Positions 44,547 through 51,286 of a stretch of 64,000 bases of DNA are shown here, piece after piece. Positions within the stretch are counted from its first letter, which is position 1. Every line of letters starts with the position of its first letter. This stretch comes from Solirubrobacter phytolaccae. GTDB lineage: Bacteria > Actinomycetota > Thermoleophilia > Solirubrobacterales > Solirubrobacteraceae. Below the pieces are notes generated by a model that was not told the origin of the DNA, searched no databases, and saw nothing but the letters and a program-made list of their open reading frames with translations. Location of the stretch: assembly GCF_027587195.1 (NCBI RefSeq), contig NZ_JAPDDP010000035.1:1-64000 (forward strand). The letters are read 5' to 3'. The translations under genes were made by a program, and so were the position numbers.

Positions 44547-45448
44547 GCGACCTCGAACTCCGCCCAGCCGCCCGCCGTGCGGGCGGTCACGATGCACGTG
44601 CGGCGCCCGTTGGCGCGGCCCTTGCGGACGCTCAGCTTCGTGCCCGCCGGCCGCCAGCGCCCGCGGTTGCAGCCCGCGCTCGTCGCCCGTGGCGGGCGGG
44701 TCGCGTACGGCGCGGTACGCGCCGGGAGGGCGCCGGTGATCAGGGCGAGGTGCGGCAGGACGCGCTCGCTGACGTCCGCCGGTCCCTCGCCGCACTCCCT
44801 GAGCTGCGTCTCGCCGCCCCAGCTGACCACGCCCACGACCTGCAGCACGCCGTCGCGGGTGACCATCACCGGGCTGCCGCTGTCGCCCGGGCAGGACTGG
44901 GACTTGTTCGGCGTCGGGTCCTGCGTGCACAGGTGGAAGGACGGGTGCAGGAGGCGCTTGAAGTAGCCCTTGCACGTCGCCGACGGGAGCACGGCCTGGC
45001 TCGCGGCGCGCGGGGCGTCGGCGACGTCGGTCTCCGCCCCCGTCATCCCGCGGCCGATCGTGGTGGTCGGCTCGCCGTCGGCGGGCGCGGTGGTGGCGAG
45101 GACGAGCGGCGCCACGTCCGTGACGGGCGCGCGCAGCACGATGATCGCGGCGTCGCGGACGGCGGCCGACGCGCTGTAGCTCTCGGGCGCGGCCGGGCTC
45201 GGGATGACCCGGTAGCGCGGCGAGAAGTAGATCCCCCGCGCAGGACGCTCGCGGCCGCCGACGATCACGTCGAACGTGCTCGGGCTCGCGCCCTGGACGC
45301 AGTGCGCCGCGGTAAGCACGCGGTCGGGCGCGATCAGGCTGCCGCCGCAGAAGTGTCCACCGCCCGCGCTGAGCGACACGAACGCCGGCAACTCCGCGGG
45401 TGTGCCGTGGAAGATCGAGGCGGAAGCGAGTACGACAGCGGCGAGCAT
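44534..45448 (-). CDS. Secreted trypsin-like serine protease
   Basis: A 304-residue S1 peptidase. A short hydrophobic N-terminus (LAAVVLASASIF) acts as signal or anchor. The catalytic His49 lies in VLTAAHC, the Asp in RDAAIIVLRAPV and the Ser in CPGDSGSPVMV, where the usual GDSGGP reads GDSGSP. Cysteines flank the active site as in chymotrypsin folds. A C-terminal extension (about 235-304) forms a small beta domain with one cysteine pair. The ATG at 45448 lies 8 bases after a TACGGT box and diverges from the DtxR gene. Confidence 0.85.
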   Translation of the reverse strand: MLAAVVLASASIFHGTPAELPAFVSLSAGGGHFCGGSLIAPDRVLTAAHCVQGASPSTFDVIVGGRERPARGIYFSPRYRVIPSPAAPESYSASAAVRDAAIIVLRAPVTDVAPLVLATTAPADGEPTTTIGRGMTGAETDVADAPRAASQAVLPSATCKGYFKRLLHPSFHLCTQDPTPNKSQSCPGDSGSPVMVTRDGVLQVVGVVSWGGETQLRECGEGPADVSERVLPHLALITGALPARTAPYATRPPRATSAGCNRGRWRPAGTKLSVRKGRANGRRTCIVTARTAGGWAEFEVAYTR

Positions 45449-45456
45449 GACCCGGA

Positions 45457-45462
45457 ACCGTA
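45457..45462 (-). promoter_or_regulatory. -10 box (TACGGT) for the trypsin-like gene
   Basis: TACGGT on the minus strand ends 8 bases before the ATG at 45448. It shares two base pairs with the opposing TAACCT box, so the divergent promoters overlap and probably compete. Confidence 0.45.
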
Positions 45463-45466
45463 ACCT
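45461..45466 (+). promoter_or_regulatory. -10 box (TAACCT) for the DtxR-type gene
   Basis: TAACCT ends 6 bases before the ATG at 45473 in the 24-base divergent gap. Confidence 0.45.
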
Positions 45467-45472
45467 AGAGGC

Positions 45473-46135
45473 ATGGCGCGGCCGTCGGAGGCGATCGAGG
45501 ACTACGCGAAGGCGATCTACTCCCTGGCCCGCCAGGGGGACGGTACGGCGACGACCAACGCGCTCGCCGAGCGGCTCGGCGTCACGCCGGCTTCGGTCTC
45601 CGCGATGGTCAAGAAGCTCGACGAGCGCGGGCTCGTGCGCCACGTGCGGTACAAGGGCGTGGCCCTCACGCCGGACGGTGAGCGGGTGGCGCTGGAGGTC
45701 ATGCGCCACCACCGGCTGCTGGAGACCTACCTCGCCGAGCACCTCGGGGTGCCGTGGGATCGCGTGCACGAGGAGGCCGAGGCGCTCGAGCACGTGCTGT
45801 CCGAGTACCTGGAGGCGCGGATCGCGGCCGTGCTCGGCCACCCGACGCACGACCCGCACGGGGACCCGATCCCGACCGCGGAGCTGGAGATCGTCGAAGA
45901 GGACTCGCTGCGGCTCTCCGAGCTCGAGCCGGGCGACTGCGGCCGGTTCGTGCGCGTCTCGGACTCCGACCCGGCGATGCTCCGCTACTTGGACGAGCGC
46001 GGCGTGAAGCTGGGCGACGACCTCGAGGTGCTCGAACGCCAGCCGTTCGACGGCCCGCTGACCGTGCGCTTCGGCGACAACCTCCACGTCCTGGGCGGCA
46101 CGCTCGCCCAGGCGATGCGCGTCGAGCGAACCTAA
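45473..46135 (+). CDS. DtxR/MntR family metal-dependent regulator
   Basis: A 220-residue repressor. The winged helix is at about 5-65 (LAERLGVTPASVSAMVKKLDERGLV), then the metal-binding dimerisation domain (MRHHRLLETYLAEHLGVPWDRVHEEAEALEHVLS, with His, Glu and Cys-replacing residues) and a C-terminal SH3-like FeoA domain (about 145-220). DtxR proteins sense Fe(II), MntR proteins Mn(II); the ligand cannot be decided here. It is followed by a nested hairpin and the copper operon, which it is unlikely to control. Confidence 0.9.
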   Translation: MARPSEAIEDYAKAIYSLARQGDGTATTNALAERLGVTPASVSAMVKKLDERGLVRHVRYKGVALTPDGERVALEVMRHHRLLETYLAEHLGVPWDRVHEEAEALEHVLSEYLEARIAAVLGHPTHDPHGDPIPTAELEIVEEDSLRLSELEPGDCGRFVRVSDSDPAMLRYLDERGVKLGDDLEVLERQPFDGPLTVRFGDNLHVLGGTLAQAMRVERT

Positions 46136-46177
46136 AGCCACCTAAAGGGGTCAGACCCCTTTAGGTTCGTTTAGGTT
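46129..46177. terminator. Nested inverted repeat, terminator or mobile-repeat relic
   Basis: Outer arms AACCTAAA (46129-46136) and TTTAGGTT (46170-46177) enclose inner arms ACCTAAAGGGG (46140-46150) and CCCCTTTAGGT (46156-46166), with 3-base internal loops and a TCAGA loop. The outer left arm includes the DtxR stop codon. It probably ends DtxR transcription before the copper operon. The GGGGTCAGACCCC core resembles dispersed intergenic repeats in other bacteria. Confidence 0.6.
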
Positions 46178-46184
46178 TCTCCAG

Positions 46185-46201
46185 ATACCCCCGGGTGGTA
46201 T
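46185..46201. promoter_or_regulatory. CsoR-like copper operator, copy 1 (ATACC-N7-GGTAT)
   Basis: ATACC-CCCGGGT-GGTAT lies 9 bases upstream of the CopZ start codon. The arms and 7-base spacer match the form of CsoR operators of copZA operons in Firmicutes. The position at the operon promoter fits copper-responsive repression. No csoR gene is in the window. Confidence 0.65.
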
Positions 46202-46210
46202 GGTGAAGGT

Positions 46211-46420
46211 ATGGCCGACACCCTCACCTACCGCGTCGATGGCATGTCCTGCAACCACTGCGTCGTCGCGGTGAGTGGTGAGGTGGGCCGGGTTCCCGGG
46301 GTGAGCACGGTCGATGTGGACCTCGACACGAAGCTCGTTCGCGTCGATGGTGCAGGGATCGACGCGTCGGCGGTCGTCGAGGCCATCGACGAGGCCGGCT
46401 ACGACGCGGCGCCGCTATGA
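46211..46420 (+). CDS. copZ: Copper chaperone, heavy-metal-associated domain (CopZ-like)
   Basis: A 69-residue cytosolic chaperone that passes Cu(I) to the CopA ATPase. It is a single HMA domain with the metal-binding motif GMSCNHC (about 11-17) and the fold-typical VSGEVGRVPGVSTVDVDL. The start lies 9 bases after a CsoR-like operator, with GAAGG just ahead. Overlaps the next gene by 4 bases (ATGA), forming one operon with the exported protein and CopA. Confidence 0.9.
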   Translation: MADTLTYRVDGMSCNHCVVAVSGEVGRVPGVSTVDVDLDTKLVRVDGAGIDASAVVEAIDEAGYDAAPL

Positions 46421-47192
46421 GTGCGCCCGTCAAGCTCGCCGGGTTCGCGGCGCTGCTGGTGCTCGTGTTCGGCGTGGCCGTGGCGGCCGGCGACGTGATC
46501 GGCCCGGATCGGCAGGCCTCGGAGATACCCCAACCCGGTATGGGTGAGCACGGGGCCGTCGACCCGATCCGCGGGCTGTCGATCGCCGAGGGCGGGCTCT
46601 CGCTGGAGGTCGCGGAGACCTCGCCGGAGCTCGTGTTCACGATCCGCGGCGAGGACGGCGAGGCCGTGCGCGACTTCGAGGTCGAGCACGAGCGCCGCAT
46701 GCACCTGATCGTCGTCCGCCGGGACGGCACGGGCTTCCAGCATCTGCATCCCGAGCTGGGCGCGGACGGGGCGTGGCGCACGCCCTTGACGTTGCCGGAG
46801 CCGGGCGCGTACCGCGTGTTCGCGGACTTCAACCACGACGGCACCTCCTACACGCTCGCGGCGGACGTGACCGTGGACGGCGCGGCGACGTACCGGAGCT
46901 TCCCGGCGCCGGCGAGCGCGGATACCACCGATGGGTATGACGTTCGCATGCGCGCGGACGGTGAGCAGCTGCGGTTCGACATCACCCGCGGCGGCGCGCC
47001 GGTCGAGACCGAGGAGTACCTCGGCGCCGGCGGGCACCTCGTCGCGCTGCGCGAGGGCGACCTGGCGTTCCTGCACGTGCATCCGAACGACGACGGCGTG
47101 TCCTTCGAGGCCGACCTGGAGCCGGGCACCCGCTACCTGCTCTACCTGCAGTTCCAGCACGAGGGCCGTGTCCACACGGCGGAGCTCGTCCG

Positions 47193-47196
<4 letters not shown>
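46417..47196 (+). CDS. Exported histidine-rich protein of the copper operon
   Basis: A 259-residue protein with an N-terminal hydrophobic signal or anchor (about 5-25). The body contains two similar halves: [20 protein letters not shown] (about 90-109) and [20 protein letters not shown] (about 207-226). Each has one His, then an aromatic-x-His-x-His-Pro cluster 10-13 residues later, followed by a YRV or YLLYLQF strand. This suggests a duplicated beta domain with two metal sites outside the membrane. Sandwiched by 4-base overlaps between CopZ and CopA. Role in copper binding is inference. Two CsoR-like elements lie inside its coding sequence. Confidence 0.75.
46525..46541. promoter_or_regulatory. 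CsoR-like element, copy 2, inside coding sequence
   Basis: ATACC-CCAACCC-GGTAT, same arms and spacer as the operator at 46185. It includes an in-frame ATA isoleucine codon, which is rare in such GC-rich genes, suggesting the DNA sequence itself is conserved. Confidence 0.45.
46922..46938. promoter_or_regulatory. CsoR-like element, copy 3, inside coding sequence
   Basis: ATACC-ACCGATG-GGTAT, the third copy in 754 bases, 397 bases after copy 2, within the gene between CopZ and CopA. Confidence 0.4.
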
Positions 47197-49451
<2,255 letters not shown>

Positions 49452-49488
49452 GCGCAAACAAAATCAACACGGCGACTGGTGAGTCGGT

Positions 49489-49494
49489 TAGGCA
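49489..49494 (+). promoter_or_regulatory. Possible -10 box (TAGGCA) for the LamG protein gene
   Basis: TAGGCA ends exactly 7 bases before the ATG at 49502. The last base departs from TANNNT, so it is a weaker match than the others. Confidence 0.3.
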
Positions 49495-49501
49495 TCGGTG
49501 C

Positions 49502-51286
49502 ATGTTCGCCCGTGCTCTGCTGGTTCTCCTGCTGGTCATCGTCGCTCCCGCGTCCGCGCACGCCGCCACGTGGTACGTCTCGCCGTCCGGATCCGGAACG
49601 GCCTGCACATCGGGTACGCCGTGCGGGTCGTTCTCGGCCGCGTACGCCGCCGCCTCCCCGGGCGACGTCGTCGAAGTGGCGGCGGGGAGCTACGGATTCC
49701 AGTCCACGCCGGAGGGCACGCGGTCCGGTCCGCCGGTCGTCTTCCGGGAGAGCGGCGGCGACGTCGAGGTCAGCGCGCTGGACGCCGGCGGCGACTGGAC
49801 GACGTTCCAGGGGTTCGAGATCACGACCGGCGGCGTCGGCGTCGTCTCGACCATCGCGAACAACAAGGCCATCGGCAATCGCTTCGAGGATGTCCGCATG
49901 GTGGGCGGGCTGTACCTCCAGAACACCGATCAGACGGCGATCATCGGTGGTGAGATCTGCTGTCGTGCGGACACGAAGGTCATCAACATGGCCGGGCAGA
50001 TCGGCGGGGATCCCGCGAACACGGCCAACACGGACGTGCTGATCGACGGCACGGACATCCACACCGCGACCCGCACCAGCGGCAGTGTCCACACCGAGTG
50101 CGCGTTCCTGATCGCGGTGCAGGGGATGACGATCCGCAACACCCACTGGTGGAACTGCGCGGTCTACAACTTCGGCATCGGGAAGATCGGCAGCGACCTC
50201 TGCCCGTCGGACATCCTGATCGAGAACAGTGTGTTCGAGGCCTCCGACGACATCACCGTCGGCGGCAAGCAGGGCTACTACGCCGGGTACGTCCAGAGCT
50301 GCGGGGTCGACGTCCAGTTCCGCAACAACGCCTTCGAGCAGGGTCTCGAGCTGGATCCGACGGCGTCGCCCGAGCCGCTGGTCACCGGCAACCTGCTCTA
50401 CCAGGGCTTCAACTGCAACGACGCGACGTTCGTGCACAACACGATGGTGCGCGGCGGAGGCGCGTGCTCCGGCGGCGATGACCACGACAACGTCTCGATC
50501 GCGAGCCTCGCCGACCAGTGGATCGATCCGGCGAACGACGACTATCGGCTCAAGCCGACGTCGCCCGCGATCGACGCCGCCGACCCGAGCGACGCGCCGG
50601 CGCTCGACAAGGACGGCCGCGTCCGTGACGCCCTACCGGACGCCGGGCCGTACGAGTACGAGCCCGCGGTCGCCAAGTGGGCGCTCAACGAGACGAGCGG
50701 CACGACCGCCGCGGACTCGATCAATGGGCTCGACGGGACGCTCACCAACGGCGCCGCCTGGACCGCCTCCGGCAAATACGGCGGCGCGGCGACCTTCGAC
50801 GGCACCGACGACTACGTGAACGTTCCGGACGACACCCTGCTGGACCTCGACACGTTCACGCTCGAGGCCTGGGTGTACCCCACGTCGCTGTCGGGCTCGC
50901 AGTACCGGTCCGTGATCTTCAAGGAGGACGGCGCGAACAGTCGGCAGGCGTACTCGCTGTACGCGAGTGAGGGCGCGTCGCACCCGACGGCCGAGGTCGG
51001 GGACCCGCTGAGCTCCGGCGTCGAGCGCATCATCGGCTCGCAGACGATCGCCGCGAACACCTGGACGCACATCGCTGCCACCTACGACGGCACCGCGCTC
51101 AAGGTGTTCAAGAACGGCGTCGAGATCGGCGCTCAAGCGCTCACCGGCACGCTGCCGACGAGCTCGAGCCCGCTGCGCATCGGCGGCAACATGATCTATT
51201 GGAACGAGTGGTTCGAAGGGCACATCGACGAGGTCGCCGTGTACGACCGCGCGTTGTCGGCCGCGGAGATCGCCGCCGACATGTGA
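49502..51286 (+). CDS. Secreted beta-helix protein with C-terminal LamG domain
   Basis: A 594-residue exported protein. The signal peptide is about 1-21 (ARALLVLLLVIVAPASAHA). Residues ~22-370 look like a right-handed beta-helix (repeated short strands with Asn and Gly turns; WYVSPSGSGTACTSGTPCGSFSAAYAAA is the common opening of such proteins) and contain cysteine pairs. Residues ~390-594 are a concanavalin-like LamG domain (GGAATFDGTDDYVNVPD; EAWVYPTS; HIDEVAVYDRALSAAEI). It probably binds or cleaves polysaccharide outside the cell; no catalytic motif is recognised. The ATG at 49502 is chosen because it starts the signal peptide. Confidence 0.8.
   Translation: MFARALLVLLLVIVAPASAHAATWYVSPSGSGTACTSGTPCGSFSAAYAAASPGDVVEVAAGSYGFQSTPEGTRSGPPVVFRESGGDVEVSALDAGGDWTTFQGFEITTGGVGVVSTIANNKAIGNRFEDVRMVGGLYLQNTDQTAIIGGEICCRADTKVINMAGQIGGDPANTANTDVLIDGTDIHTATRTSGSVHTECAFLIAVQGMTIRNTHWWNCAVYNFGIGKIGSDLCPSDILIENSVFEASDDITVGGKQGYYAGYVQSCGVDVQFRNNAFEQGLELDPTASPEPLVTGNLLYQGFNCNDATFVHNTMVRGGGACSGGDDHDNVSIASLADQWIDPANDDYRLKPTSPAIDAADPSDAPALDKDGRVRDALPDAGPYEYEPAVAKWALNETSGTTAADSINGLDGTLTNGAAWTASGKYGGAATFDGTDDYVNVPDDTLLDLDTFTLEAWVYPTSLSGSQYRSVIFKEDGANSRQAYSLYASEGASHPTAEVGDPLSSGVERIIGSQTIAANTWTHIAATYDGTALKVFKNGVEIGAQALTGTLPTSSSPLRIGGNMIYWNEWFEGHIDEVAVYDRALSAAEIAADM

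What the first reader, a model, noticed from the sequence alone, without database searches (positions are those of the whole stretch)
46185..46938. Three CsoR-like elements (ATACC-N7-GGTAT) in and ahead of the copper operon, two within a gene
Seen: identical 5-base arms with identical 7-base spacers at 46185, 46525 and 46922. Ten fixed bases in a GC-rich genome are expected about once per million bases, so three in 754 bases is far beyond chance. The first is at the CopZ promoter. Copy 2 uses a rare ATA codon, suggesting selection on DNA sequence. The arms match known CsoR operators. Inference: downstream sites may support DNA looping, road-blocking by the repressor or internal promoters.
Basis: partly seen in the sequence, partly recalled or inferred. 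Interest (0 to 1): 0.75.

Follow-up and report, generated by a model that had tools for sequence, protein, structure and literature searches.

The report
Copper-repressor operators hidden inside a gene
In one branch of the soil bacterium Solirubrobacter, the copper-export operon carries two extra binding sites for its copper-sensing repressor inside a protein-coding gene, and these bases have been kept by evolution at otherwise free codon positions, which suggests that the repressor also acts on transcription after it has started.

Summary
ATACC-N7-GGTAT occurs exactly 4 times in the 7.74 Mb genome: three in this copper operon and one at the start of a DUF4396 gene. A one-mismatch copy precedes the only csoR gene. 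The same motif is the promoter operator of this operon in about 100 Actinomycetota loci, and it fits the TAC-N9-GTA dyad that Streptomyces CsoR needs. The two intragenic copies keep their place, and the dyad, in all five genomes of one Solirubrobacter clade. Across copZ, the 259-aa gene and copA (1046 aligned codons, four lineages), only five third codon positions hold an invariant A or T. Four are the arms of the two intragenic sites; the fifth is the first base of the copA start codon. So the sites are under selection as DNA. They lack a -10 element on either strand, which speaks against internal promoters. Their spacing changes by half a helical turn between lineages, which speaks against a rigid loop. 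Best reading: auxiliary CsoR operators that, in low copper, block RNA polymerase leaking from the copZ promoter or reading through from the upstream mntR-like gene. Binding and roadblocking are inferred, not shown.

The parts
45473..46135 (+). mntR-like DtxR-family regulator gene, same direction, upstream neighbour in the whole clade with intragenic sites
   Evidence: Pfam Fe_dep_repr_C 4e-31, FeoA 8e-17; adjacency in G000, G135, G138, G133, G134 and not in G137, G136, G022, G140
46185..46201 (.). CsoR operator 1 at the copZ promoter, ATACCCCCGGGTGGTAT
   Evidence: exact match; orthologous promoter operator in nearly all related loci; 23.1 bits
46199..46204 (+). putative -10 element TATGGT; the copZ ATG follows after 6 nt, so the mRNA is probably leaderless
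   Evidence: sequence; equivalents TATGCT, TATACT and TATCGT in relatives
46211..46420 (+). copZ, 69-aa copper chaperone
   Evidence: Pfam HMA 8e-16
46417..47196 (+). 259-aa membrane-anchored protein with two beta-sandwich domains and HLHP/HVHP motifs; hosts operators 2 and 3
   Evidence: no Pfam or NCBIfam family; AlphaFold model pLDDT 89.6, helix 3-28 plus two all-beta domains; FnIII-like matches only
46525..46541 (.). intragenic CsoR operator 2, ATACCCCAACCCGGTAT, codons ATA CCC CAA CCC GGT AT(G)
   Evidence: conserved at place with an invariant wobble A and T in four lineages; 19.8 bits
46922..46938 (.). intragenic CsoR operator 3, ATACCACCGATGGGTAT, codons (G)AT ACC ACC GAT GGG TAT
   Evidence: conserved at place with an invariant wobble T in GAT and TAT in four lineages; 20.6 bits
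47193..49451 (+). copA, copper P1B-type ATPase; no operator inside
   Evidence: Pfam E1-E2_ATPase 6e-53; no site with up to 1 mismatch in copA of the seven Solirubrobacter genomes

Best explanation
The operon mntR-like / copZ / 259-aa protein / copA carries one CsoR operator at the copZ promoter and two auxiliary CsoR operators inside the coding sequence of the second gene. Supported here by comparative sequence evidence: the intragenic sites are CsoR-type operators under purifying selection as DNA. Inferred: in low copper, apo-CsoR (two tetramers per operator, as in Streptomyces lividans) sits on all three sites. The promoter operator blocks initiation, and the internal two stop or terminate RNA polymerase that leaks past the promoter or reads through from the mntR-like gene just upstream, so copA is not made. 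Cu(I) releases CsoR from all sites at once and the whole operon is transcribed. Rough odds by step: CsoR operator identity and DNA-level selection 0.9; an effect on transcription of the operon 0.75; roadblock of elongation as the main mechanism 0.5.
For: Four exact sites in 7.74 Mb, all at copper-type genes, and a one-mismatch operator before the sole csoR. This CsoR is closest to S. lividans CsoR 4ADZ and keeps the aligned Cys, His and Cys. Its operator requires TAC-X9-GTA (PMC3902906), which every intragenic site of the clade keeps. Third codon positions: 5 invariant A/T of 1046, 4 of them the operator arms and the fifth the copA start codon. Of 46 other A/T-ending codons in the window's genes, none is kept in all four lineages, against 4 of 4 in the operators. 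The amino acid changes (Ile to Val) while the wobble A stays. Synonymous shuffles give two such sites in at most 2 of 5000. No -10 follows any intragenic site. A co-directional mntR-like gene is 1 to about 310 bp upstream exactly in the clade that has the sites. An intragenic box of another metalloregulator, Zur of B. subtilis, mediates 4- to 9-fold cis-repression (PMC4324032).
Against: No binding, footprint or expression data. All genomes with the sites form one clade, so the mntR adjacency is a single coincidence, not a replicated correlation; the outgroup G137 also has an apparent co-directional upstream ORF but no intragenic sites. In G138 and G134 site 3 is ATACGG..GGGTAT, weaker than almost all promoter sites (14.7 and 17.5 bits). 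Since the same Cu(I) signal empties all sites, the gain over promoter repression could be small. Many intragenic sites of other regulators are inert, although those are not conserved (PhoB, PMC10294691).
Confidence: 0.6

Rival explanations
1. DNA looping: CsoR bound at the internal operators bridges to CsoR at the promoter, as LacI does between O1 and O2, and so strengthens repression of initiation.
For: Three operators in 737 bp, and the spacing of 340 and 397 bp is identical in G000, G135 and G138. Two tetramers bind each CsoR operator (PMC3902906).
Against: In G133 and G134 the spacings are 409 and 427, shifts of 6.6 and 2.9 helical turns, so the phase between sites 1 and 2 is not kept. I know of no report of CsoR bridging distant sites (own knowledge).
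Confidence: 0.2
2. The internal sites are repressed internal promoters giving extra copA (or antisense) transcripts in high copper.
For: At the copZ promoter the operator runs into the -10, and each internal site also ends in TAT.
Against: All intragenic sites in the clade run into TATGGG, TATGGC, TATGAC, TATGAG, TATCGC or TATCGG, none with the -10 T, whereas copZ promoters have TATGGT, TATGCT, TATACT or TATCGT. The reverse strand has none either (read). The consensus scan finds no promoter in 45300-49700.
Confidence: 0.06
3. The rare codons themselves are selected (slow translation after the membrane anchor and at the domain boundary), and the match to CsoR operators is a by-product.
For: Site 2 lies just after the anchor helix in a low-confidence linker and site 3 at the start of the second domain. 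ATA, GTA, GGT and TAT are rare.
Against: Does not predict the full 17-bp pattern with the promoter's spacing, nor conserved GAT (11.7% of Asp codons), nor scores of 19.8 and 20.6 bits on a PWM from other genera. No other A/T-ending codon in the three genes is kept in all four lineages except at the copA start codon.
Confidence: 0.05
4. The sites bind CsoR but serve as a sink or are inert, with no effect on the operon.
For: Intragenic sites of other bacterial regulators are often inert (PMC10294691).
Against: Inert sites are not expected to be conserved at synonymous positions; these are. Two extra sites are a small sink.
Confidence: 0.09

Closest known systems
Type 2 CsoR operators of Streptomyces lividans (csoR, copZA1, copZA2; PMC3902906)
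   Same: TAC-X9-GTA dyad with G/C tracts; copZ promoter and csoR promoter sites; nearest solved CsoR is 4ADZ from S. lividans
   Different: There all three described sites lie upstream of genes; here two of the operon's three lie inside a coding sequence
Roadblock operators inside transcribed regions: PurR at E. coli purB, CodY and CcpA in B. subtilis (cited in PMC10294691 and PMC4324032)
   Same: Repressor site downstream of the promoter in transcribed DNA, no promoter of its own
   Different: Different repressor family; two sites rather than one (for purB from own knowledge); here the effect on elongation is inferred only
Intragenic Zur boxes of B. subtilis (PMC4324032)
   Same: Metal-sensing repressor, boxes within coding sequence
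   Different: Those are scattered over many genes outside the core regulon; here they lie in the repressor's own target operon and are conserved at synonymous sites
lac O2 / gal OI auxiliary operators of E. coli (own knowledge)
   Same: Auxiliary operator inside the first structural gene, one promoter operator
   Different: Those work by looping; here the helical phase is not kept between lineages
Chlamydia trachomatis YtgR operator in trpRBA (PMC6504234)
   Same: Metal-dependent repressor proposed to stop transcripts coming from upstream
   Different: That site is intergenic with its own promoter

Membership tests
CsoR (type 2) operator | TAC-N9-GTA inverted repeat, essential for binding | tested here: met
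   All intragenic and copZ-proximal sites of the clade keep it; requirement from PMC3902906
CsoR (type 2) operator | G/C tracts inside the dyad (ACCCC / GGGGT) | tested here: inconclusive
   Site 1 and G138/G134 site 2 good; G000 site 2 (CCCC..CCCGG) and site 3 (CCA..GGG) partial, within the range of promoter operators elsewhere; G138 and G134 site 3 weak
CsoR (type 2) operator | A CsoR with the Cu(I) Cys-His-Cys ligands is encoded in the genome | tested here: met
   One PF02583 protein; aligned Cys, His and Cys in YCIDVL and GHTRHC
CsoR (type 2) operator | Restricted to copper or csoR genes in the genome | tested here: met
   4 exact sites in 7.74 Mb, all at copZ/259aa/copA or DUF4396; csoR site with one mismatch
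CsoR (type 2) operator | Bound by apo-CsoR, released by Cu(I) | not testable with these tools
   needs EMSA or footprinting
Roadblock operator (purB / CodY type) | Site in transcribed DNA downstream of the promoter, without its own promoter | tested here: met
   Coordinates; no -10 at the intragenic sites; no consensus promoter
Roadblock operator (purB / CodY type) | Occupancy lowers transcript downstream relative to upstream | not testable with these tools
   needs RT-qPCR, RNA-seq or reporter fusions
Looping auxiliary operator (lac / gal type) | Helical phase between operators conserved | tested here: not met
   340/397 bp against 409/427 bp; at this length the criterion is weak
Looping auxiliary operator (lac / gal type) | Repressor able to hold two distant operators | not testable with these tools
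   not known for CsoR

The most novel reading that the evidence does not exclude
CsoR works as a copper-dependent transcript attenuator inside its own operon: partial copper release frees the promoter first, giving copZ and part of the operon, while internal operators of different strength hold back copA until copper rises further, so one repressor sets an ordered chaperone-before-pump response and also insulates the pump gene from read-through from the mntR-like gene.
Probability: 0.25. Interest if true: 0.75.

Novelty: new variant of a known kind. Interest (0 to 1): 0.58.

Why it matters
Intragenic matches to repressor motifs are usually discarded: a 2025 study of a CsoR/RcnR-family regulator removed them explicitly (PMC12724321), and many proven intragenic sites of other regulators look like noise (PMC10294691). 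Here the DNA sequence is kept at wobble positions where nothing else of the kind is kept, so these are likely functional. It would extend CsoR from control of initiation to control inside the operon. It also gives a simple, general test (invariant A/T wobble bases in GC-rich genes) for finding functional intragenic operators.

Tried and rejected
Internal or antisense promoter: no -10 after any intragenic site on either strand. RNA hairpin as the conserved object: folding is inconsistent (z from -0.2 to -3.6), and in G138 and G134 the site 3 arms do not pair with each other. Recurrence in other lineages: near-operators at or above 10 bits inside the orthologue were found in about four other lineages (10 hits against 1.1 expected by synonymous shuffle). 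On inspection the Streptomyces one breaks the dyad (GTACC...GGGGCAT). The Actinoplanes one follows the conserved protein motif TPGQYR and its wobble bases vary. The S. soli one (GAACCCC...GGGGTAT) breaks TAC. So none is counted as a proven case. Solved structures did not identify the 259-aa protein: the ubiquitin hits come from a short composition match, and one search shows only generic FnIII-like sandwiches.

Full report
Check of the observation. The three 17-bp sites are exactly where stated. In the whole genome (7.74 Mb, 169 contigs) the exact pattern occurs four times and the reversed control never. The fourth copy overlaps the start of a 149-aa DUF4396 membrane protein (Pfam 9e-41). With one mismatch there are eight more places, one of them just before the only csoR gene of the genome, followed by a TAGAAT -10 and then the ATG. 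In the seven genomes of the genus there are two to four exact sites each, 18 in all, and none of the control pattern. Those I inspected lie at this operon, at DUF4396-type genes, or between csoR and the copper operon in G136.

What the motif is. In loci from about a hundred Actinomycetota holding a relative of the 259-aa gene, nearly every locus has this motif, exact or with one mismatch, upstream of the operon, often as two copies 34-40 bp apart. A matrix from 150 such sites in 95 loci, the window's clade left out, scores the window sites 23.1 (46185), 20.6 (46922) and 19.8 (46525) bits against a promoter median of 22.2; the next place in the window scores 6.2. S. lividans CsoR needs the dyad TAC-X9-GTA, binds as two tetramers per operator and is released by Cu(I) (PMC3902906). 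Every site in this operon has that dyad, and the closest solved relative of this genome's CsoR is that same S. lividans protein, 4ADZ. So 'CsoR operator' is as firm as sequence can make it.

Are the intragenic copies selected? The 259-aa gene was found in 56 of 146 genomes of the family. Both intragenic sites are present at the orthologous place in five genomes that form one well supported clade (100/99): the window, G135, G138, and G133/G134, which are identical at this locus. In G138 and G134 each site has one mismatch but keeps TAC-N9-GTA, although inner bases and amino acids changed (I-P-Q-P-G-M against V-P-E-G-G-M and V-P-D-G-G-M) and G134 has an insertion just before site 2. In G137 (Solirubrobacter soli, 64% identity) site 2 is GAACCCCACGGGGGTAT and site 3 is gone. 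Codon alignment of copZ, the 259-aa gene and copA over four lineages has 1046 aligned codons. 530 keep the third base, but only five keep an A or T: ATA/ATA/GTA/GTA at 46525, GGT at 46537, GAT at 46921, TAT at 46936, and CGA at 47191, whose A is the first base of the copA ATG. Outside these, of 46 A/T-ending codons in the window's genes only 7, 10 and 4 are kept in G135, G138 and G134, and none in all. ATA is 3 of 636 Ile codons in the window, TAT 5%, GGT 7%, GAT 12%. Four named columns all falling among five of 1046 has a chance of about 1e-10 if columns were independent. This is direct evidence of selection on the DNA.

Mechanism. At the copZ promoter the operator runs into a -10 (TATGGT, TATGCT, TATACT, TATCGT in the four lineages); in the window, G135 and G138 the start codon follows 6 nt later, so the mRNA is probably leaderless. 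None of the intragenic sites has the -10 T, and the reverse strand has no -10 either, so internal promoters are unlikely. The spacing is 340 and 397 bp in three genomes but 409 and 427 in G133/G134, which changes the helical phase by about half a turn for sites 1-2; a stiff loop is not favoured. What remains is a repressor sitting in the path of RNA polymerase. In all five genomes with the sites, and in none of the four related operons without them that I checked, a gene for an MntR/DtxR-like regulator lies directly upstream in the same direction. In G138 its stop codon touches the operator. Read-through from that gene would bypass promoter repression, and internal CsoR sites would stop it before copA. 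This is a single evolutionary event and so only suggestive.

Limits. Nothing was measured in the laboratory. Site 3 is weak in G138 and G134. Whether the effect is roadblock, looping or another form of auxiliary repression needs the reporter tests listed. Literature checks found no report of intragenic CsoR operators, but the held library is not complete. Known parallels are purB/PurR, CodY, CcpA and the Zur boxes of B. subtilis; roadblocking in vivo depends on affinity and promoter firing rate (PMC4132739).

Noticed in passing
46144-46162: AAAGGGGTCAGACCCCTTT palindrome between the mntR-like gene and the copZ operator; 10 exact copies (AAAGGGGTCNGACCCCTTT) in the genome and no control match, so a dispersed repeat family; also scores as a terminator-like hairpin.
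   Followed up: partly
L001:1501-1517 (G000:C81:1526-1542): The fourth exact operator lies inside the 3' end of an upstream LuxR-type regulator ORF and overlaps the start codon of a DUF4396 gene; similar sequence context in G133, G134 and G138 suggests DUF4396 is a CsoR-regulated copper gene.
   Followed up: partly
46417-47196: Uncharacterised family between copZ and copA across Actinomycetota: N-terminal membrane helix plus two FnIII-like beta domains, each with invariant His (HLHP, HVHP); no Pfam or NCBIfam family; a likely copper-binding partner of CopA.
   Followed up: partly
L017, L019, L020, L023, L024, L027, L030, L032, L033, L040, L042, L043 promoters: Tandem CsoR operators 34-40 bp apart before the operon in many relatives; the gene-proximal copy often ends in CCGTAT instead of GGTAT.
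   Followed up: no
about 48730-48830: copA of this genome has about 30 residues more than its close relatives (752 aa against 722-724), a repetitive PGSSA stretch in the region of the ATP-binding domain.
   Followed up: no
L088, L131, L137 (Actinoplanes), inside the orthologous gene near codon 140: TAC-N9-GTA near-operator within the codons for (D/N)TPGQY, up to 18.3 bits in A. utahensis; possible independent intragenic site, but it may follow from the protein motif.
   Followed up: partly
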